From Terramyces sp. JEL0728 (Eukaryota > Chytridiomycota > Chytridiomycetes > Rhizophydiales > Terramycetaceae): a stretch of 17,774 nucleotides of DNA. The stretch is taken from the NCBI GenBank assembly GCA_027603945.1, contig JADIIU010000194.1, forward strand, positions 1 through 17,774. Reading direction: 5' to 3'. Under the pieces are notes generated by a model. It was given only the letters and a program-made list of their open reading frames with translations, was not told the DNA's origin and ran no database searches. Positions 3,080 through 17,614 of the stretch are shown here, one piece after another. The stretch's first letter is position 1. The number at the start of each line of letters is the position of its first letter. The position numbers and the translations under genes are program-made.

Positions 3080-3520
3080 TTATTTTGCTACTTGAACATG
3101 AGTAGAGAAACACCCAATTGTAGAATTGTTTGCATCTCCATTTTTAGCAGAGATTTCCATTAAATATCTTTGTGCAAAGGTTGGAGAAAATGGCTTTGGC
3201 CATAATTGTACAAAATCAAACGTGAATTCAGTTCCAGCAGCAATGGGACATGCATATCCAGAAGCACCTGTCAATTCGCAAAGATTGCGATTTACAATAT
3301 AGATTTTCACCAAATTTACGGTGATTGTCTCTTTGAACTTGGCACCTTCCACAATATCTTGAGTTGCAGTTCCGGTAAAGGTCAGAGTATAGTTCTGTCC
3401 ATTTAGAATTGGATATGGGGAGATGCTTGAACTCGTCAAGTTCATATTTTCAATGGCTCCAGGACAGTTATCGAACGATTGAGCAAAAGCGAGCGGCAAA
3501 AGTGAAAAGAAGAGATTCAT
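3080..3520 (-). CDS. Secreted ML-domain lipid-binding protein, paralogue 2 (divergent)
   Basis: The 146-aa product begins with a hydrophobic signal peptide (MNLFFSLLPLAFAQ), then SFDNCPG. The ML domain shows SSISPYP, NGQNYTLTF, VKIYIVNRNLCELTG, YACPI and YLMEISAKNGD. The four Cys fit the same disulfide pattern as the two flanking paralogues. It departs most in the central strand: IYIVNRNLCEL replaces the IRIYHQTLDxCxQ shared by the others. A different lipid ligand or older duplication is therefore likely. It is intronless, and its stop lies inside AAAATAAA. It sits between two same-strand ML genes, with long gaps on both sides. Confidence 0.85.
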   Translation of the reverse strand: MNLFFSLLPLAFAQSFDNCPGAIENMNLTSSSISPYPILNGQNYTLTFTGTATQDIVEGAKFKETITVNLVKIYIVNRNLCELTGASGYACPIAAGTEFTFDFVQLWPKPFSPTFAQRYLMEISAKNGDANNSTIGCFSTHVQVAK

Positions 3521-3950: not shown

Positions 3951-4373
3951 TTAAGCAACTTGGATGTTGGAGGTCAAGCAGTTGACAGCAGATCCATCGG
4001 CGTTGGTGGTAGCAATGGTCATAACGTATTGGCCAGCTGGGATGATGGCAGGAACCAATTGAGTAACGTTCATGGTTTGTGGACCAGCTGGAATTGGGCA
4101 AGCAATTGGTGGAGTTTGTAAAAGAGATTGTTGGCATAAATCCAAAGTTTGGTGGTAGATTCTGATCTTTCCTTTGTAAACAGAGACATCAATAGATGCT
4201 CCTTGGTTGATAGCTCCGGTAGAAGGTCCAGTAGCAAAGATGGTAACATTTTTTCCGTGAACAAGTGGATAAGGAGTGATGCTAGTAGTGTCGACGGTAA
4301 AGATACCTCCGGTTCCACAGGTGGAGAAGGTTTGAGCAGAAGCAACAGCGGCAAGAACAGTAAGAGCGAGCAT
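3951..4373 (-). CDS. Secreted ML-domain lipid-binding protein (NPC2/PG-PI transfer type), paralogue 3
   Basis: I start at the ATG at 4373 (140 aa), not at an in-frame ATG 23 codons upstream. The later start begins a proper signal peptide (MLALTVLAAVASAQTFSTC) and sits 30-40 nt from a TATA box; the upstream 23 codons are polar and include the TATA region. The ML domain has ITPYP, HGKNVTIF, YKGKIRIYHQTLDLCQQ, ACPI, LVPAIIPAGQYVMTIATTNADGS and a final Cys in VNCLTS. Its four Cys match the other two paralogues. It is nearly identical to paralogue 1 over the central strand, including a 38-nt run identical at DNA level (4141-4178 versus 1166-1203). It is intronless, and TAA is directly followed by TAAA. 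Confidence 0.88.
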   Translation of the reverse strand: MLALTVLAAVASAQTFSTCGTGGIFTVDTTSITPYPLVHGKNVTIFATGPSTGAINQGASIDVSVYKGKIRIYHQTLDLCQQSLLQTPPIACPIPAGPQTMNVTQLVPAIIPAGQYVMTIATTNADGSAVNCLTSNIQVA

Positions 4374-4940: not shown

Positions 4941-5802
4941 CACAGGGCTGACGAGGAGTTTGATAGACTTTATCGTGAAAGGGAGTTTGCATCAGTGCAA
5001 ATCACGAATCGATGGATCAAACGACGAAATTCCGTGAGAGTAGAATGAAATTTACTTTGTAAAAGTTGTGTAATTCCAACACTCTTTTCAATGCGGTTCT
5101 TTATTTACCAAGGCTATAAAGTGACACGCAGAAAGGACATCTCGGAAAAACAATTCTTTGTGTTAATATATCGATCACAAAGCCGGCTCTTGTGGTCCAA
5201 TCTACAAACTGGGAAACTTTTTACTATGGAGGACATTTCCAAGAAAAAGTCTGTCGGATGTATTTAATTCCAGTGCACTTCAGCTACGGAACTACGACAA
5301 CGGTAGCTTCACCAGTGCCAACCCAGGATTACCAACCACAATTTCAAATAAAGAACCAAGCATCAATTTAGTTCAGAAAAGTGTTTTAAGCCATCTTCCA
5401 CATTGTCGAAACCCCTGGATATAAATTTCAAGTATTCATACAGAGAAAGTAATCTATCTCTATTCTTTCCTTTTTTGGAACAATGGTGTGTAGCACAAAC
5501 GGAATAATTATTTGAAAATGAATCACAAAGATTGTTGGACTTTAGTGAAGCGCAAACCACTCATTGGAACATGCTTGAAGCAAAGGCCAGATGGAATTCT
5601 GACTGAAATGAGTGTTTTCAGAAATCGCATTAAAACAGGGATTGCCCGATAATATGGAGCGACGTTACTATTGCAAACCAATACCCGTGTCAATGGTCTG
5701 ATTTATTGGTCAACTCTGTATTTAGTTCCTTGGGGTTTTCTCAAATTGGTCACGTTAGAAGCGCCATTCTCCAATTCAGAAGTCCCAGGTTGGTGCCCTT
5801 GA
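4941..5802 (+). pseudogene. Degenerate coding region, possibly a decayed copia-type retrotransposon pol fragment
   Basis: Two plus-strand frames stay unusually open here. The first runs from 4941 to about 5265 with one TGA. The second runs from about 5167 to 5802 with only three stops (TAA 5422, TAG 5491, TAA 5650) in roughly 210 codons. In the second, 5494-5649 reads HKRNNYLKMNHKDCWTLVKR, then KPLIGTCLKQRPDG. After the stop, GLIYWSTLYLVPWGFLKLVTL follows at about 5695-5757. This resembles the start of Ty1/copia reverse transcriptases: a W-x-LV-x-R motif, a PDG turn, then a YWxTYxPVV-like block. The spacing between PDG and YWST is about 14 residues too long, so the call is tentative. I see no LTRs or target-site duplication. 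The stretch just before 5869 must also hold the promoter of the DUF3712 gene. Confidence 0.33.
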
Positions 5803-5868
5803 TTTTGTGACGCTGAATGGACAAATAAAAGCGTCAAAAAGGACTTGCTCTATCATAGAATATATACG

Positions 5869-8800
5869 ATGGCGGACGCATCAAGCAAAATTCCTGTCCA
5901 AACCGGCGGATGGTATTCAGTAAGAATAAATTAACCTAGCCATCGTACGACTATAAAGCCAAGGGAAAATCTCCTGAAGAAATTGCCCAGAATCCCCGCT
6001 ATTGCAATGGCAGAATGAAGAAATGGGAGTTTGTTGCACTCCACTTTTTTGTGGTTTTCAACCTCATCCTCGCGGTTCTGTTGCCAGTGTTCTACTTTTC
6101 AATCTTTCCAAACTTTTTGCAGTACCACATTGACCAAATTGGTGTCAACGGTAACACTATCAGAGTCCACAAGGCGTATATCGGCCAAATGCAAGACGGG
6201 TCAATCCCAGCTGAAGTTGACATTAGAATCGACCCTTTCACTTCATTCCCATTGCAAGGTGGGTTCCTTGCTAGCACTGTCGACATTTTATCTGGCGGAA
6301 AGACTTTGGCATCCCTCCAGGTTCCTGAATTGCAGTTCATGCTCAACGAAGAAATCAGAGTTAACGTCAATTCTACTGTTACTATGAGTGCCGACCAACA
6401 ACAGAATGTCCAAGATTTGCTCAAGCAATTGTCGACCCCTGACGGTGTCAAGAACTTGCAAGTCAACATCCGCTTGAACCCAACGGTAACTACCCACGGA
6501 ATTACCATCTATTCGCACCTTGCTTTGAAGAGAGATCTTTCTTTGGGAGATATTGTAGCCAGCACCAAGATGTTGACTGGTGGGCCGTCCAACTTCCAAA
6601 ACCCATTCATCTTTTCCGGGCCAGACAGCAATCAACGTAAGTTTATGGTTAACGATAGTTTCAAGCGAATTGCGCTCTCAATTCAACGCCGACGACATTA
6701 TGCAACTGCCAGACTCTTTGGGAGATTTCCAAATCATCTGGACCAAGTTTGCAATGCAGATGCAAGACATTATGGCCTCCACTGATTTTGGATTTGGATT
6801 CGCTAATCCAAAGTACATTTCCTTGGCACAGATCGACAGTCTTTCCTACTACCTTGCCATTGAAGACACCAAAGTCGTCAAGATGACTGTTCGCAACGTC
6901 GGCTTGAAGACTGAAATCAACAACGACTTTAAGCTTGGATTTGACTTTACTTTTATCGATCCGGCTATTGATCCTACTGCTGTACAAACTGCTATTGAAA
7001 CTGCATTCAACAACTTTGCCACAAAGGCAGACTTTGGATTTGCGCTCCAAGGCCCTATTGTAGTGTCTGGTGCAGGCTTTTTCGAAAAGATCACTGCCGA
7101 CTTGAATGTGCGTGGATCAGTTGGCGACATTCTCTCACTTGTTCCGCAAACATACGCTGATATTCTCAAGAACCCAACTTCTGCTATTTCTGTCAACGCT
7201 ACCCAAATTATCGACATTATTGGAAAATCCAAGATTGAATTGGATGTCTTGGCCGACAAGGTCTTTACGTCGCTTGGTCTTAACATTCCACTGTTCAACT
7301 TTTTGAAACCACCACAACAGATTGATATCCCATACTCTGCTGGAATCAGCATCTACGCCGGAGACAATCTCGACCAAAAAGTCATTGATTCCAGCCTTGC
7401 CCCAATCTCTATTACCCGCGAAAAGGAAGATGTGTTCCTTTACACCAATGCTACCGTGGTTCCGCAAAACTCTGACGACGCTGCTACAGCCCTGGCTGCA
7501 TCCATCAACCCTATTCTTGCAGCCAATGCATCGATTGGACACATTGGTATCAAGGACTTGGTCTTCATGACTCCTGGACAAGCGCCATTCAAGTGGACTC
7601 AAGTGTTGTTTGGAACACGAGTATTGAAGATTGCATTGCCAGCTTTAGACAAAGCCTTGATCAACTCCTTAAACTCACCTGCGCTCTCCAACGCACTGGG
7701 CAAAGTTGCGCAATTGGCTGTTGGAAGCATCAACGTCAACCAAATGACTACCCAGCCTGGATTTGCAGCTACCGGAAACGTCAAGGTGACTCTCAGCCCA
7801 ACTCTGCCAACCGTTCATGTTGATATCGGCTACTTCCATGTTGATACTGCGATTGAAGATGTCCCACTGGCTTCTTTGGAAATGCCCCAAGGTCTCCAAT
7901 TCTTCCCAAGTGCATCCGGAACCAACATCAATGCCCAATTGACGGTCGGCCGCGACCCTAGAATCGCTGCCAAAGCGCAAAATCTTGTTGATGCTTTGCT
8001 CAAGAACGGCACTTTGCCATCGTACTTTGGAGCCACTGGTTTGAAATTTGGTGCTTCGGCTCAAAACTACTTCAAGACCTTCTCCAAGGTAGTTGTTGAC
8101 ATCAACACACAAACTTTGAAGGATGTGCTGGCTGGACAACAGCTGAACATTGCCATTCCAGCTGGATTGGTCAAGGTCAACTCTGCTGATGTTCAAATGC
8201 AATCATCCACCAGCTTGAACTTGAACGCCGGAACTACTCTCAACTTGCCATTCCCATTCACTGTCAGTGCTTCCCTCGGCAACGTTGCGCTCACCACTTC
8301 TCTTGAACAGCAGTTCTTGATGGGATTGAACCTCGGTGCACTCAACGTTGGCAGCGGATCCCAGCCTGCCACTCTCCAATCTGCAGTTACTCTTGCCACT
8401 GGTGCCAACGGATTTGCAGCCAAGGTCGGATCAGCAGTCAATGCAATCATCAAGCTTGACGAATCTTCCCCTCTTGTGTTTGGCGCTACCGGACTCCAAC
8501 TCGGATCTGGTGCAGGTTTGATTGATCAATTCAAGGATGTCAAGGTTTCAACCACTGCTGGAACTATTGTTACTCTCTTGAAGAAACTCATTGACGCAAA
8601 CCCAACTGCTGGAAGTCCAATCGACTTGTCTGCTGTTCTCCCTGCCGACTTGGGCAATGTTCTTGCAACTCAAGTCAAGCCATCTGTCAACAGTCTCAAA
8701 TTGCATGTGCTCCCACAGTCCAGTATCGATGCTGGTGCCGACGTGACTTACAACAACCCAATCCCAGTGTCTGCTTCCCTGCCTTATGTTTCGCTGTCTG

Positions 8801-11800
8801 CCTTGCTCGATGGTTCAAAAGCTTTGGATCTATCCTTGTCCAATGTGGTTTTGAAGAGAAACAACGGTAAGATATTCGTTAACAATAGGTGCCATGACTC
8901 CAGATGTTGGATTGACTTTGGCTAGCGGCTTGAGCACCAAGATCGATGCTCTTTTGACTGCGTTTATGAATGGAGAGCTTTCATCAAAGGTTGGTGTGCA
9001 GAACCTCTACTTTGGAACCAGTGCAAATGACAAGAACGACTTGCTCTCCCAGGTCTCTCTTCCAGACTTGAACTCGCTCTTGGCTCCAGTTGTCAAGGTC
9101 GCTGGACCTGCAGTTGCTTCGCTGGTCAAATCCTCAGGCGCAACCGTTACAAAGAGAGACACTGCTCCGTTTGTCATCAAGGGCCCAATGGGTATCAACT
9201 TGGAGCTCAATGGCGCAGGCTTGGAGTTGCTGGACGGACAAAAAGTAAATGCAAACCTCAACGTCAAGCTCGACTTGCCGGCTCCATTCTCCAAAACCTC
9301 GTTCGATGTCAGCATCCCATACTTGGGCGGTTCTGCTTCGTTAGACCAACTCCCCGTTTCCGACTTTTCCTTGGGATTGAATGTCCAAGGACAAAACCCA
9401 TCTGTTGCTCTCAACACCCTCCTCGCATTGAAAGACTCTGATGAACTCGCAACTGAAGTAAACGCACTTTTGAACGCCATTTTGAAGGGATCTCAAGTTC
9501 CAGGAAATGCTATTGTTCGCGGACTTACTATCGGTGCCAGTGCTCAAGACACCAACGATGCACTCTCTGCTGTCACTGCATCGCTTCCATTGCAAAACTT
9601 GATTCCATCTGGTCTCTCAGCAAGCAGCTTGGATCTCAACAGCTTGCTTACCCAGCTTTCACCAAGCATCGGCAATGTTGGTATCACTACCAAGCCAGGC
9701 AAGGTACTGGAAAACACTGCTGCAATCAAGTTCAATCTTCCGTTCCCAGTTACTCTCAAGGGTGTCAACTACTTTACTGCTTCTGCTGCCATTGACCAAA
9801 ACGCATTGGTTGACATTTCATCCACTTCCCCAATCTCTATTGCCTCTGGCACCAACGAATTGAATGCTGCTTTGGATGTGCACTTCCCAAGCAGTTCTGC
9901 AATTCAATCATCTGTCAGCAAGTTTGTCAACGATCTGCTCAACAACATCGACAAGAACTTTACCGTCCCATTCACCCAAGACGTCACTGCATCCAACATT
10001 GCTGTCGGTTTCAGCGCTTCTCAACCGTTGAAAGCTTTGAGCAAGGTAGTACTCAAAATTGATCCAAACTTGCTCATAAACCAAAAGAACTACAACTTGG
10101 TATTGAAATTGATCAATGATAAACTCGCAGCCAGTAGCAGTGGGTTGTTGTCCAACGCATTCTTGAAGAGATTCATGATGCACGCCGACAACGGACCAAT
10201 CATCAACGGGGAAATCATTGGTGGACTGCACCAATTGCTTCCAATCACTGCAAACATTGGATATGCCAAGCTGAACGCACAAATGGACTCTGTTGATTTG
10301 TTGGAAATTGGATTGAACAAGGCTCTTACTGTGGCTGCTAACGCAGGAGACACTGTTGCCAGCGTCTACAACTACATCAAGCTTTCTGCTAACCCACTTG
10401 TCCAAAAGGCAGTTGCCAACTTCTTTGACTTGGTTTTGGCTAAAAAGCCAGTTCCAGACAGAGTTGGAGGAACCGGCGCGCTTATTGGTGCTTCCTCCGA
10501 CCCAGCTGATGTTATTGACACTTTCCAAACTGTCAACTTGTCCTTTGAGGTCCAGCCTGTTGTAAACATTATCTACAAACTGGTCAACAACTTGATGAAC
10601 TCTAACGATTCTAGTATTTTGAAAGGACTCAAGATTGTTCCAAAGAGCATGGACTTGGATGTACATGACGCCAAGACTCTCGTTGCAAATGCTGAAATTG
10701 ACTTGCCAGACTCTCCAGTTGATCTCGATATCAACATTCCATATGCTACCGCTGCCATTTCATACAACGGTGTTTCTCTAGTTCAGAATGCAGTGCAAAA
10801 CATTGTTATCAAGGACAACAAGGTAACTGCATCCGTCTACTTGACCTTCAACGACCAAGCTGAAGCCAAGCCAATCTACCAAGATGTATTGGGCATTGTT
10901 GGAAACGTAGCCTTCAATGTCGCTACCACCACAGACGACTTTGTCAACCTTGGATGGCTGACTTTTGGACCAAGCAAGGACAGCCAAATGTCTCTTTTGG
11001 GCAGTGTTAACGCCAAAGTTGTTTTGAGTCCATTGATTGAAATGGCTAGAAAGCTTGCAGAACCATACTCGTTGGAAAACATTGATGCATCCATCCAGTT
11101 GGCAGGTATTCATGCTGCTGCCACTCTGCCAGATTTGGGTCTTCCATTGAACTTTAAGGCAACTCTCAACTCTATTGCAAAGTGGGATATCGGCAAGAAG
11201 CGCGACCCTACCAAATTTGTCCCAATTGGTCTGGTCGTTGGTAAACCTTTCACCCTTCCTCACGTTGATTTGCTTGTTGAAATCCCAACTGTCGGAAGCA
11301 ACCAGCCATTCCCACCTCAAACCGTTGCAGTCGTTGCAGCAATGACGGATTTGATGGTCAGTGTCGCCACTTTCCAAAGCTTTGCAGAAAGCGCGGTCAT
11401 TGGTTTCGTGTCTTTAGTCGGATCGAATGGTGCTGTTTTCAACATTCTCGCTGATGCTTACTTGTTTGGTCCTTCTGGATTATCGCTCCACAATGTGATT
11501 GAAATGGATCTTGTTAATGATCAATATACTCACTTCTGGGATGATGTTAACAAGTATCCGAACCATGATCCAACTGCTTCCCAAGGTCCAGGTGTTTCTG
11601 CACAAGACAACCCAGTCATTGCTCAAATCTCTGTTATCAACAACTCACCGCTCCACTTGGATGTTGGGCAAGTTGTAGTTTGGGCTGGCCAGAACCCTAC
11701 AGTTTGGGGCCAACCAGATCTCACAAACGCTATTTCGCTTTACATGAGCTCTATCGGAAATGTTGTTTTATTGAACAAGAATGAAGGCGGTAATGTTCTC

Positions 11801-12178
11801 AGTGATGCCGGTATGCCAACTGTTGGATTATTCGAAGGAAACTTGTGGTCCATGCCATACCTGTTTTCAGTCGACCCAGTCACTGGAAATCTTATACCTT
11901 TTTCAGGGGATGAATGGGTGAATATTTTCACACAATTCACACAGTCTACCCCTCAAGGTATCTTTTCCACTATCATTCAAATTACCAGGGATGGAAAGTC
12001 TGTTGATTGGTTCAATAATCTGATTATTGCTATGGATAAATCATTCTGGTTTGACAAACTGGCTCCAGCTTTCGCTTCAGGCGACTTGCCAAAGCACTTC
12101 AACTACGGAAACTACTACAATGGTAACTTCTCCACTGGTGCTAAAAACTGGGATTACCAGCTCACCATTTCAAAATAA
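5869..12178 (+). CDS. Giant membrane-anchored DUF3712/LEA-2-like repeat protein, 2081 aa, four exons
   Basis: Exons are 5869-5919, 5940-6636, 6659-8866 and 8889-12178, giving 6246 nt with frame kept throughout. The introns are 20, 22 and 22 nt, with GTAAG starts and TTAAC near the AG. The N-terminus is a 47-residue cytosolic-looking tail (ends CNGRMKKW), then one TM segment (about 48-70, FVALHFFVVFNLILAVLLPVF). The rest is lumenal or extracellular and made of tandem beta-sandwich modules of 150-172 aa. Each has an amphipathic 'L..hh.ALL.G' helix followed by a G-x-(I/F)-G-x-S motif, for example FGATGLKFGASAQ near 8050, then near 8490, 9014, 9530, 10003, 10483 and 10963. DUF3712 and related LEA-2-like modules occur in fungal single-pass vacuolar or surface proteins such as yeast Tag1. 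A distinct C-terminal domain, rich in aromatic residues and Asn, starts near 11500. KR-D sites occur at residues 214-216, about 1074 and about 1756. The function is unknown. The stop lies inside AAAATAAA. Confidence 0.85.
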
Positions 12179-12224
12179 ATGTAGTTTTGTCAATTGTTCA
12201 TAAATTTAAAACCAAGACTTTATT
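12174..12224. terminator. Facing poly(A) signals between the DUF3712 gene and CDC48
   Basis: AATAAA on the plus strand (12174-12179) spans the DUF3712 stop codon. AATAAA on the minus strand (12219-12224) is 12 nt past the CDC48 stop. With 57 nt between stops, the two 3' UTRs must be very short or overlap. Confidence 0.6.
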
Positions 12225-12235
12225 AGATTGGCAAC

Positions 12236-14779
<2,544 letters not shown>

Positions 14780-15021
14780 TTCGAGATCAGTGAAAAAACC
14801 CAGGGTTATTTTTCAAGTCGATTCGCTGTGGCTTTGTTACATTGGAGAACAAATTAGTCATTAAGTGGAACTAGTTATTACGTTCAAGTTTCTGCCCTTT
14901 GCTCGGATTTAGTTTCAGGAATAATGGAGCACGCTATCGATGCATAATTGTTCAGGTGCTCATTCTGTTCTAGTCGGCGATTCTGGGACTGCCATCCATT
15001 ATTCAAAACTATATTTATTAC

Positions 15022-15435
15022 TTATTTTGTATTGGTATTAACCAGCAGTGCCTTCAATCTCTTTTGTTTCTTCATATAATAAAATACACTGGTTAAACAG
15101 GCAAACAAAAACAATGCCGAGCCAACGATTGAAAAGAATAGGACTGGGTTGCCCCGAGGATCTATTTCTGCATTTAATTTAGGAGATGGTTTAAATAACT
15201 CGAATTTGAGTGAATCGTAATCCTGTTGATCGTTGTCCTGCTGGTAAAATTGGTCGAAATCTTGTCGATCCTCCTGTTCATAATCACTTGATTGGTAATT
15301 GTTGTTATTTTGATAGTGTTTCTGATTTCCCTTTGAATATGAATGCGAGTCTTGAATGAATCTTGCAGACATTAGATTTCGTTCGCTGATTTTGGTTTTT
15401 AAGGGGCGAAATCTCAGCCTTACATTTGGAAACAT
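15022..15435 (-). CDS. Unrecognised single-pass membrane protein, 137 aa
   Basis: I do not recognise a family. Residues 1-26 (MFPNVRLRFRPLKTKISERN...) are basic and free of acidic residues except one Glu, which could be a mitochondrial presequence. Residues 28-75 are a low-complexity Gln/Asn/Asp/Tyr-rich stretch. One TM helix spans about 97-120 (NPVLFFSIVGSALFLFACLTSVFYY), followed by a basic tail (MKKQKRLKAL). By the positive-inside rule the C-terminus would face the cytosol or matrix. No intron is needed. The stop is followed a few bases later by AATAAA. It is transcribed away from the RAB3GAP1-like gene, from which about 250 nt separate it. It may be a small mitochondrial inner-membrane protein, but that is inference. 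Confidence 0.6.
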   Translation of the reverse strand: MFPNVRLRFRPLKTKISERNLMSARFIQDSHSYSKGNQKHYQNNNNYQSSDYEQEDRQDFDQFYQQDNDQQDYDSLKFELFKPSPKLNAEIDPRGNPVLFFSIVGSALFLFACLTSVFYYMKKQKRLKALLVNTNTK

Positions 15436-15683
15436 CGTGAATGGGCAGTGTTTTCAATAAATAGATTGAGGTTGTGAAGATGTAGTGGTTTATATCTTTC
15501 AAGGTATCGGAATAAATTCCGTTGTTTTCCGCAAGTTTATTTGTTAGTCTGTTGACGAGTGATTGATTCCGTTGTAAAATTTACATGTCTTGTGTTCAAA
15601 GGTATTCCTTCCATTTAAAAGATTTCGCATTGCTTGATATCCACTTTCCATGGATAATTTCCTTCAAAAAAGTTAATCTCAGG
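15436..15683. promoter_or_regulatory. Divergent intergenic/5' region between the membrane-protein gene and the RAB3GAP1-like gene
   Basis: Both flanking genes read outward from this stretch, so it must hold both promoters. No clear TATA box is seen. An in-frame ATG at 15585 could extend the RAB3GAP1-like protein by 33 residues, but those residues do not match the family, so I treat them as 5' UTR. Confidence 0.4.
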
Positions 15684-17614
15684 ATGAACGAATTCGAGTT
15701 TGTAGACCACACATTCGCTACACAGCTAGAAAAAACAGTGACAGAGCTCTCTCTATACTTGGAACCTAGAATTAAGCAAAGACAAACAATTCTGCACCAT
15801 TTTCAATACAGACAAAAAGGATTTGTTAAATCAATGGATATTAATGACACTTATTCCATTGTGTTCCATTGTGATTCATTATCACTTGTCAAGTTGGTAA
15901 TGAAGGGATTTGATGTCCCGTTCTATTTGGAAACGGACCATCGGTACAAGCGAATCTACAAAGGTAACTGAATTGCCGTACCTGGAATTCTTATTAAAAA
16001 CAGATTAACAGTAGGATATCAATATGGAGAAACTTTAAAGGAAATCAATATCCTAGTATTGTCCTTCACGCCAAGTGTGGACTACTTGCAGCATTTTCCT
16101 AAAAGTAGACTGCTTAAAACAGTGAAAAAGTACAAGCGGGTTGTTCATTACGAGCACGAATTGTTTAATCTTTCATTTATCGTCACTTTTCAGGAAACAA
16201 ATGATAATACTACACAGAATACACTCAGTTCGTCTAGCGGAATTAAAACAAGCGTAGGAAGCAAGACAAATCTGGAAACTGGAGATAGCAAGTCTAACCT
16301 GGATGAAATCAAGCCAAATCTGCAACCCGGAGATAGCAAGTCGAATTTGAATGACAACAAGAGTGAATTACAGAATACCAACCTCCAATCACCAACCAGG
16401 AAGGATCTTGCAGAAACAAACTCACAAGTTAAACCAGCCAAAGGAAATTTGGATATTAAGATCATTGAAAACGGAATCACGCAAATATTCAAACACAACA
16501 AGCAAACACGCATACCAGGACACTATGATTTCTACGATTACGATATTTCCAACTTGTTTATAAACTCAAATTCAGACAATATAACAAAAGAAACAATCAA
16601 GAAGCTACGGTTCCTGAATAAAACGGTGCCAAAAGGATCTTTATTGTGGAACTTTGCAAAGTTAATTATAAAAATCAAAAAGACTGAAATCGATCCAACT
16701 TCTGTTATTCAGTCAATTTACAATCAGTTACTAGTACGACTATTCTCAAACAAACCAATACCAAATTTACTAAATTGTGAGTGCATACAGCCATGTGAAT
16801 GCATCGGATTACAGCATATCCTGCTACACCAGAAAATCAGCATGATTAACGCTTGTTTAAAAAGACGAAAAGACCGAGAATCTAACTTGATTGAAAATTA
16901 TGAAAAGATTGAAATCAATAGCTGGAAGTCTGATGCTAGTTTTGAACTACTTGAGCTCAAATTTGATGGAAGAAAGATGAAGCTCGATGATGAGCTGTAT
17001 ATCCCAGAAACACAGTCTCCAACAGTGCAAACAAGGTTTCTTTTATTAATTCAGCGATATGATTGATAGTTTCCAACAAGAATTGCTCTACGCTGATAAT
17101 CCGACAATGCTACAAACGCAACACTTGGAATCTGATATACAGTCGTTCAAAGCCGCCAATCCAAACTGCAAATTTATTGATTTTGTAAAGTGAGTCTAGT
17201 TAATATAGATGGTACTCGCCGAATGATATTAAAAACAATCAGCTTTCACAGCGAATGCAAGGGAATTGTCTATGGAAACGGTTATTTGACTCAAACCCGC
17301 CTGTGCCATGCAAGTACCAAAAGCCTATTTTTGATATTGACAAGCAAATGAGCATAGTTGAAGAGTACCTGGAACAATGCGATATTATCACTGAACTTGA
17401 GCCTATTTATGAGCTTGTACTCGCAGATTCTTTCAACATACCCCTAGATAATATTAAAGTCGTGGAGAATATCGTTATTGATGGGTGGAAGAAAGAGTTT
17501 GAAGGATTTGAGGAGAAGGATTTGGTTGACGTGAAGGAAATTTATAGCGGTGGGTTGATTGTTACCAAAGGGCAAGAATTTAGCATCACACGAATAAAGA
17601 ACCTTGATTTTTAA
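15684..17614 (+). CDS. RAB3GAP1: RAB3GAP1-like Rab GAP catalytic subunit, 614 aa, four exons
   Basis: Exons are 15684-15963, 16012-17035, 17055-17189 and 17209-17614 (1845 nt). The introns are 48, 19 and 19 nt. The start was chosen because MNEFEFVDHTFATQLEK lines up with the EVFEITDFTTASEWERF start of animal RAB3GAP1. Conserved landmarks follow: FDVPFYLETDHRYKRIY (about 76-92), LLHQKISMINACLKRRK (about 365-380), SWKSDASFELLEL, ELYIPETQ (about 421), SFKAANPNCKFIDFVK (465-480) and WYSPNDI (481-487). The last two join only if the 19-nt intron is removed. Then come LSQRM and a region matching the family's KPIPARRQRRLF block, degenerate here (PPVPCKYQKPIF). With RAB3GAP2 this protein acts on Rab3 and Rab18 in vesicle, lipid-droplet and autophagy traffic. 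It is shorter than the 981-aa human protein. Residues about 157-240 are a lineage-specific hydrophilic insert with GDSKSNL repeats. Confidence 0.85.
15964..16011 (+). other. 48-nt intron, possibly an intron nested in an intron (stwintron)
   Basis: Removing 15964-16011 joins IYK to VGYQYGE in frame and deletes the only in-frame stop (TGA). It is twice the length of every other intron here. Inside it, 15978-16003 itself begins GTACC and ends ATTAAAAACAG (26 nt). Taking that out leaves 22 nt, starting GTAACTGAATTGCC and ending ATTAACAG, which is exactly the local norm. The two donors (GTAACTGAATT and GTACCTGGAATT) and the two acceptors are alike, as expected if one short intron was inserted into or duplicated within another. 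A plain 48-nt intron is equally consistent with the frame. Confidence 0.6.
16271..16371 (+). repeat. Degenerate coding repeat in the RAB3GAP1-like gene (GDSKSNL)
   Basis: The word ggagatagcaagtc occurs at about 16280 and 16330 (50-51 nt apart), each encoding GDSKSNL. Related NLET, NLQP and SELQ words lie around it. It falls in a hydrophilic, probably disordered loop absent from the conserved family core. Confidence 0.6.

What the first reader, a model, noticed from the sequence alone, without database searches (positions are those of the whole stretch)
5920..17208. Genes cut by ultrashort spliceosomal introns of 19-22 nt
Eleven introns of 19-22 nt are placed by frame and, in CDC48 and the RAB3GAP1-like gene, by conserved protein sequence across the joins. 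They are 5920-5939 (20), 6637-6658 (22), 8867-8888 (22), 12700-12720 (21), 13104-13124 (21), 13745-13765 (21), 14186-14205 (20), 14570-14589 (20), 14746-14765 (20), 17036-17054 (19) and 17190-17208 (19). Removing all six from CDC48 gives exactly 806 aa with GPPGCGKT restored across one join. The introns start GTA, GTG or GTT and most carry TTAAC, CTAAC or TTAAT only about 5-7 nt before the AG. Fungal introns are typically 50-100 nt. Sizes this small are known from nucleomorphs and some ciliates, and I know of no fungus described as having a whole set of this size. A spliceosome working across about 20 nt has little room for separate U1, U2 and branch-point contacts.
Basis: partly seen in the sequence, partly recalled or inferred. 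Interest (0 to 1): 0.88.

Follow-up and report, generated by a model that had tools for sequence, protein, structure and literature searches.

The report
Twenty-letter introns throughout a chytrid fungus
A chytrid fungus appears to have its genes interrupted by thousands of introns that are mostly only about 20 letters long, with an almost fixed inner spacing, which offers a new test of how small an intron the splicing machinery can handle.

Summary
The finding holds. The window is a whole contig of Terramyces sp. JEL0728, a chytrid. All 11 claimed introns (19-22 nt) are GT..AG at the stated places. Five of six CDC48 joins lie in indel-free alignment in 118-120 of 120 listed homologues.

It is genome-wide. 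In 200 kb of the 15-Mb genome, a motif-blind gene finder placed 104 GT-AG introns of 19-22 nt, against 9-18 for five control dinucleotide pairs, and showed no GT-AG excess at 26-150 nt. Whole-genome pattern counts agree. Rough total: 5,000-10,000.

New detail: the geometry is nearly fixed. The inferred branch A is at intron nucleotide 14 or 15 in 77 of 82 motif-bearing introns, never below 14, and usually 1-2 nt separate YTAAY from YAG.

U2 snRNA, SF1 and U2AF65 sequences are present; U1 and U6 were not found by non-exhaustive searches. No RNA-seq was available, so splicing is inferred. A GenBank model already removes two of these introns. Ten paper searches found no description of the set.

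The parts
5869..12178 (+). Large gene (GenBank HDV01_002718), 2081 aa after removal of three ultrashort introns
   Evidence: Pfam gave no family for the two long pieces tested
5920..5939 (+). Ultrashort intron, 20 nt
   Evidence: join WYS|PSYDYK matches WYKPVYDYK in two relatives, whereas the GenBank model starts with M-PSYDYK
6637..6658 (+). Ultrashort intron, 22 nt
   Evidence: same join in GenBank P0002, and LSSELRSQFN continues in Boothiomyces P0003; the blind finder chose 6641-6665 instead
8867..8888 (+). Ultrashort intron, 22 nt
   Evidence: same join in P0002 and in Boothiomyces P0003
12236..14779 (-). CDC48 gene, 806 aa after removal of six ultrashort introns
12700..12720 (-). Ultrashort intron, 21 nt (join PLP|DEAS)
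   Evidence: no indel in 120 of 120 listed homologues
13104..13124 (-). Ultrashort intron, 21 nt (join GPPGC|GKTM)
   Evidence: no indel in 120 of 120
13745..13765 (-). Ultrashort intron, 21 nt (join KRDK|TNGE)
   Evidence: no indel in 119 of 120
14186..14205 (-). Ultrashort intron, 20 nt (join PYCI|VAQD)
   Evidence: no indel in 120 of 120
14570..14589 (-). Ultrashort intron, 20 nt (join LFRG|DTVL)
   Evidence: no indel in 118 of 120
14746..14765 (-). Ultrashort intron, 20 nt (join KLT|DPQ)
   Evidence: the script failed to test this join; by eye MGKLTDPQPL matches MGKLPEPQPL in Boothiomyces P0007; the blind finder chose a 126-nt intron with the same 3' end
15684..17614 (+). RAB3GAP1-like gene, 613 aa after removal of three introns
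   Evidence: (PF13890 listed for homologues)
15964..16014 (+).
   Evidence: join as in Boothiomyces P0127; the blind finder preferred 15964-16011, 48 nt
17036..17054 (+). Ultrashort intron, 19 nt
   Evidence: same join in a second Terramyces copy P0128 and similar in P0127
17190..17208 (+). Ultrashort intron, 19 nt
   Evidence: join FVK|WYSP kept in P0128, and FVKWHSPRDW or FVRWHSPRDW in P0129, P0130 and P0131; the Boothiomyces model P0127 lacks this segment; the blind finder chose a 130-nt intron

Best explanation
These are U2-type spliceosomal introns shrunk to a functional floor, and they are the main intron class of the Terramyces genome. Shown: GT..AG ends, a YTAAY-like branch motif, restored reading frames, a length mode of 19-22 nt in the sampled genome, and an inferred branch A at nucleotide 14 or 15 in 77 of 82 motif-bearing introns with none below 14. 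Inferred: the spliceosome removes them. U2 pairs with YTAAY through an unchanged GUAGUA; the first YAG, usually 1-2 nt further on, is used without a pyrimidine tract; the 5' site is recognised mainly by GTA and the A-rich, often G-ending exon end. Only 13 nt separate the first intron base from the branch A, too few for the U6-5'SS and U2-branch helices to lie apart as in the human B complex. I therefore infer that U1, U2 and U6 engage the intron one after another or in a compacted complex (this step about 0.5 likely). Length would be set by deletion pressure against that sharp limit.
For: Coordinates, ends and frames. CDC48 joins free of indels in 118-120 of 120 listed homologues for five of six joins, and human p97 aligned across those five without a gap. 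Motif-blind finder: 104 against 18, 12, 18, 9 and 10 at 19-22 nt. Frame-free pattern counts: 551 against 136, 1323 against 197. Sharp floor of 8 nt between GT and YTAAY: 96, 34 and 13 cases at 8, 9 and 10 nt against 2 at 7 nt, background 4.6. U2 snRNA 140 bits with intact branch-binding region. U2AF65 and SF1 domain sequences present. Other genes of this genome are likewise restored: two of four U2AF65 joins and both joins of an AFG3-like protease lie in gap-free alignment.
Against: No transcript data. U1 and U6 snRNA not found, though those searches scored only part of their candidates. One 51-nt intron. 22 of 104 finder introns lack a TRAY motif near the end, about the number expected to be false. 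The motif histogram shows no excess over its reversed control at 21 and 22 nt. The finder's codon signal is weak (0.09 nats per codon) and on the window it also placed six introns that I regard as false. 200 kb is about 1.3% of the genome.
Confidence: 0.9

Rival explanations
1. Assembly or base-calling errors, or decayed genes: the short inserts are false sequence or frameshifts in pseudogenes.
For: Several loci occur as near-identical copies in the assembly (for instance L033 and L034; P0128).
Against: Errors would not carry GT..AG ends, a branch motif at fixed spacing and a 19-22-nt mode. 104 of 104 finder introns are different sequences. CDC48 is highly conserved outside the inserts.
Confidence: 0.01
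2. The inserts are real but not spliced by the spliceosome: removed from DNA as in ciliates, or bypassed in translation.
For: Splicing itself was not observed; U1 and U6 were not found.
Against: GT..AG ends and a YTAAY motif near the 3' end, with an intact U2 branch-binding region, U2AF65 and an SF1 domain. The organism is a chytrid, not a ciliate.
Confidence: 0.02
3. A mixed population: ultrashort introns are one class beside many ordinary fungal introns of 50-100 nt or more.
For: A 51-nt intron is supported in the window. Longer introns with weak or distant motifs, or above 150 nt, would escape my tests.
Against: No GT-AG excess over controls in any bin from 26 to 150 nt: 107 in all against 162-188. 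The pattern with gap 32-62 gives 122 against 110. 11 of the 12 introns that I accept in the window are ultrashort.
Confidence: 0.07

Closest known systems
Stentor coeruleus (heterotrich ciliate) 15-16-nt introns (PMC9505925, passages seen)
   Same: Genome-wide tiny GT-AG introns of very narrow length, fixed branch position, GTA start; the U2 GUAGUA motif is kept in both. Its most abundant intron starts GUAAUU, like the common GTAATT here.
   Different: Branch A at nucleotide 10 or 11 there, 14 or 15 here; weak branch consensus there, clear YTAAY here; a ciliate with all five snRNAs reported, whereas U1 and U6 were not found here.
Chlorarachniophyte nucleomorph introns, 18-21 nt (PMC10245619 section 7 read; PMC6461891 and PMC5014332, passages seen)
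   Same: Nearly the same length range.
   Different: More than 800 introns in a relic endosymbiont genome there; an estimated 5,000-10,000 in a 15-Mb fungal genome here. That paper says the Bigelowiella introns have no identifiable 5' splice-site motif; here GTA plus weak further preferences remain.
Mikrocytid introns, 16-17 nt (PMC10245619, section 7 and passages)
   Same: Very uniform length with conserved sequence.
   Different: 224 introns in a parasite with a reduced spliceosome (17-19 proteins identified); here far more introns, and U2AF65 and SF1 sequences are present. Spliceosome completeness was not surveyed here.
Paramecium introns, about 25 nt (PMC5014332, passages seen)
   Same: A genome whose introns are nearly all ultrashort.
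   Different: Somewhat longer; a ciliate.
Typical fungal introns, 50-100 nt (recalled)
   Same: GT-AG ends and a branch motif near the 3' site.
   Different: Two- to fivefold longer, with much more room between 5' site and branch.

Membership tests
U2-type spliceosomal intron | GT..AG ends with reading frame restored on removal | tested here: met
U2-type spliceosomal intron | Branch-site sequence able to pair with U2 GUAGUA | tested here: met
   YTAAY-like motif at fixed spacing; U2 snRNA with intact GUAGUA
U2-type spliceosomal intron | U1 and U6 snRNA encoded in the genome | tested here: inconclusive
   none accepted; only 41 of 233 and 48 of 1328 first-look candidates were scored for U1 and U6
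U2-type spliceosomal intron | Removed from RNA through a lariat | not testable with these tools
   no RNA data
U12-type intron | Long conserved 5' site (RTATCCTT) and branch TTCCTTRAY (motifs recalled) | tested here: not met
   positions +4 to +8 are weak and T-rich, not TCCTT
Ultrashort-intron genomes (heterotrichs, chlorarachniophyte nucleomorph, mikrocytids) | Narrow length mode at or below about 21 nt as the main intron class | tested here: met
   the sequence read was 200 kb plus the window, the pattern counts cover the whole genome
Ultrashort-intron genomes (heterotrichs, chlorarachniophyte nucleomorph, mikrocytids) | Splicing shown by transcripts | not testable with these tools
   no RNA data
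Ciliate internal eliminated sequence | TA-bounded segment removed from DNA (recalled) | tested here: not met
   ends are GT..AG; the organism is a chytrid

The most novel reading that the evidence does not exclude
Terramyces, and perhaps its whole chytrid family, independently evolved a genome-wide minimal intron built to a fixed ruler: GT, 8-9 nt, YTAAY, 1-2 nt, YAG. A modified assembly pathway serves it, in which 5' site and branch are never held apart as in the textbook B complex, and the usually near-invariant U6, and U1, are altered, interrupted or replaced.
Probability: 0.3. Interest if true: 0.87.

Novelty: new variant of a known kind. Interest (0 to 1): 0.74.

Why it matters
Introns this small were described from ciliates, a relic algal nucleus and mikrocytid parasites (PMC10245619, section 7). 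A chytrid whose genus is isolated from soil and water on pollen baits (PMC11210171, passages) would be an easier system, and as a fungus it can be set directly against yeast spliceosome structures. The sharp lower limit (branch A at nucleotide 14, against 10 in Stentor) is a constraint that models of spliceosome assembly must meet: in the human B complex the two helices are about 15 nm, or 21 nt, apart (PMC6692369, passage). There is a practical side: gene models of such genomes are easily wrong. The GenBank model of the large gene appears to miss its first exon, and the Boothiomyces RAB3GAP1 model lacks the segment next to one such join.

Tried and rejected
Rejected: sequencing error or pseudogenes, DNA elimination or bypass (see rivals). 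A ciliate contaminant: rejected, because the best matches of the large protein and CDC48 are mostly chytrids, Boothiomyces first apart from the protein itself. A first frame-switch scan gave 14 GT-AG cases at 19-22 nt against 1.3 expected; superseded.

U6: the two best Rfam matches (27.4 and 26.9 bits, cut-off 44) lie in two copies 98.9% identical over 3.1 kb and lack the AGC of the catalytic region in the alignment, so I do not accept them. A 16-base core with up to one mismatch gave 0 hits; a BLAST search gave none, which the tool says shows nothing without a positive control. U1: no Rfam match; a canonical 5' end matched twice, against 7 for the reversed control, and neither place is a U1. 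Missing from the assembly, split by introns, or diverged: open.

Pfam on pieces of the window: three ML-domain proteins; no family for the two long pieces of the large gene. Ten paper searches gave no paper on ultrashort introns in a chytrid and none that names strain JEL0728. A likely genome paper (PNAS 2022, recalled) is not held, so absence in print holds only within these searches.
Full report
What it is. The window is a whole 17,774-base contig of Terramyces sp. JEL0728: the spliced large protein finds GenBank HDV01_002718 on a contig of that length. The lineage is Chytridiomycota, Rhizophydiales, Terramycetaceae. The held genome is 15.0 Mb in 231 contigs. Terramyces strains in one paper come from soil and water on pollen (PMC11210171, passages); the source of JEL0728 itself was not seen, so 'free-living' is an inference.

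The 11 introns. CDC48 without its six is 806 aa. It aligns to human p97 over residues 8-790; the five joins in that range show no gap. Among the 120 listed homologues (of 7,995 scored), a stretch of about six residues on either side was free of indels in 118, 120, 119, 120 and 120 of 120 for five joins. The script did not test the first join; by eye MGKLT|DPQPL lines up with MGKLPEPQPL in Boothiomyces. P0008, a JGI protein of 808 aa on a contig of at most 2,481 nt and 90% identical, would fit a transcript of a relative, but its nature is not stated. In the large gene the joins at 6637 and 8867 are those of the GenBank protein, and the sequence continues likewise in Boothiomyces. In the RAB3GAP1-like gene both 19-nt joins are kept in a second Terramyces copy, P0128, and FVK|WYSP has counterparts in three more distant proteins. 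Against this, the Boothiomyces model P0127 lacks the 15 residues after FVK.

Correction. The RAB3GAP1-like gene still holds an in-frame stop after its two 19-nt introns are removed. A 51-nt intron at 15964-16014 solves this, and its join is identical in Boothiomyces. Longer introns therefore exist.

Genome-wide test without motifs. I wrote a small gene finder that scores codon usage and allows GT..AG gaps of 12-150 nt at one flat cost, and ran it on 20 stretches of 10 kb, both strands. It placed 104 introns of 19-22 nt (31, 46, 19 and 8). With TG-GA, GA-TG, AG-GT, TG-AG and CT-AC in place of GT-AG it placed 18, 12, 18, 9 and 10. From 26 to 150 nt GT-AG gave 107 and the controls 185, 181, 162, 188 and 173, so no longer class stands out. 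The codon signal is weak (0.09 nats per codon). On the window the finder recovered 8 of the 11 exactly, chose other boundaries for 3, gave 48 nt for the 51-nt intron, and placed six that I regard as false; only the excess over controls should be read. The excess scales to about 6,800 introns in the genome (bootstrap over stretches 5,300-8,450) and the motif excess to about 9,950. Both are rough.

Genome-wide test without frames. GTAATN{1,31}TTAAYNNTAG occurs 551 times against 136 for the reversed pattern. Of the first 100 places listed, 85 are 19-22 nt long: none of 19, 52 of 20, 28 of 21, 5 of 22; the other 15 are spread over 16-18 and 23-44 nt. With the gap at 32-62 the count is 122 against 110. 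GTN8TTAAYNNTAG occurs 1,323 times against 197. A motif length histogram on the 200 kb peaks at 19 (63 against 19) and 20 (71 against 9); 21 (24 against 19) and 22 (22 against 21) do not beat that control, though they exceed neighbouring lengths of about 9.

The ruler. Counting the distances GT to YTAAY and YTAAY to YAG together on the 200 kb, with 1-2 nt before YAG, spacings of 8, 9 and 10 nt give 96, 34 and 13 cases. 11 nt gives 8 and 7 nt gives 2, against a background of 4.6, so 11 is not clearly above it. Other distances before YAG are at background. In the motif-free set, 82 of 104 introns hold TRAY near the end. In those 82 the 5' site is GTA (+3 A 89%) with weak +4 A (49%), +5 T (46%; G 17%) and +6 T (50%); the exon ends A (52%), A (66%), G (49%).

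Machinery. U2 snRNA scores 140 bits with GUGUAGUAUCUGUUCUU intact. The SF1 helix-hairpin domain is found in two pieces. The U2AF65 family matches at 252 bits exon by exon, below its cut-off of 310. My spliced model, with four ultrashort introns, matches human U2AF65 RRM1-RRM2 at E 9e-62, and two of its joins lie in gap-free alignment. Its stretch RPRKLNYWDQKPKGYE resembles the U2AF35-binding motif (resemblance recalled, not tested). An AFG3-like protease with two 21-nt introns aligns across both joins without a gap. U1 and U6 were not found; the Rfam searches scored only 41 of 233 and 48 of 1,328 candidates.

How it probably works. Shown: the signals and their spacing. Inferred: splicing by the U2-type spliceosome. 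In human B complexes the U6-5'SS and U2-branch helices lie about 15 nm, or 21 nt, apart, and about 50 nt between 5' site and branch is needed for efficient assembly (PMC6692369, passages). Here 13 nt separate the first intron base from the branch A, and 1-2 nt between YTAAY and YAG leave no room for a pyrimidine tract. I infer sequential or compacted contacts, with a minimum set by the two helices.

Known company. Stentor: 15-16 nt, branch A at 10 or 11 (PMC9505925, passages). Chlorarachniophyte nucleomorph: 18-21 nt; mikrocytids: 16-17 nt (PMC10245619, section 7). Paramecium: about 25 nt (PMC5014332, passages). The kind of thing is known. A fungal, genome-wide case with this branch ruler was not found in ten paper searches.

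Noticed in passing
   Followed up: partly
whole genome G000; L033 and L034: No convincing U6 or U1 snRNA gene: the U6 core with up to one mismatch has 0 hits, and the best Rfam U6 matches (27 bits) lie in two near-identical copies.
   Followed up: partly
window:976-1434, 3083-3520, 3954-4373 (minus strand): Three ML-domain proteins side by side, uninterrupted by introns.
   Followed up: no
window:3-770: Open frame with repeats rich in TTT..PCDTQTTTADIPVVVQ and a hydrophobic end, perhaps a surface protein; no Pfam match.
   Followed up: no
window:15684-17614 and GenBank P0128: A second, nearly identical partial copy of the RAB3GAP1-like gene is filed from another Terramyces contig (23,319 nt); other loci also occur twice in the assembly, so haplotypes or duplications are likely.
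   Followed up: no
window:5869-5939; GenBank P0002 and P0127: Public gene models appear wrong at ultrashort introns: P0002 lacks the first exon, and the Boothiomyces P0127 lacks the residues after FVK.
   Followed up: partly
L038:1454-2854: U2AF65 RRM1-RRM2 is kept although these introns leave no room for a pyrimidine tract; the T-rich stretch lies upstream of the branch, at positions 5-9.
   Followed up: partly
genome-wide intron 5' ends: The common 5' form GTAATT resembles the start of Stentor's most abundant intron, GUAAUUUUUAUAUAG: possibly a convergent signal of minimal introns.
   Followed up: no
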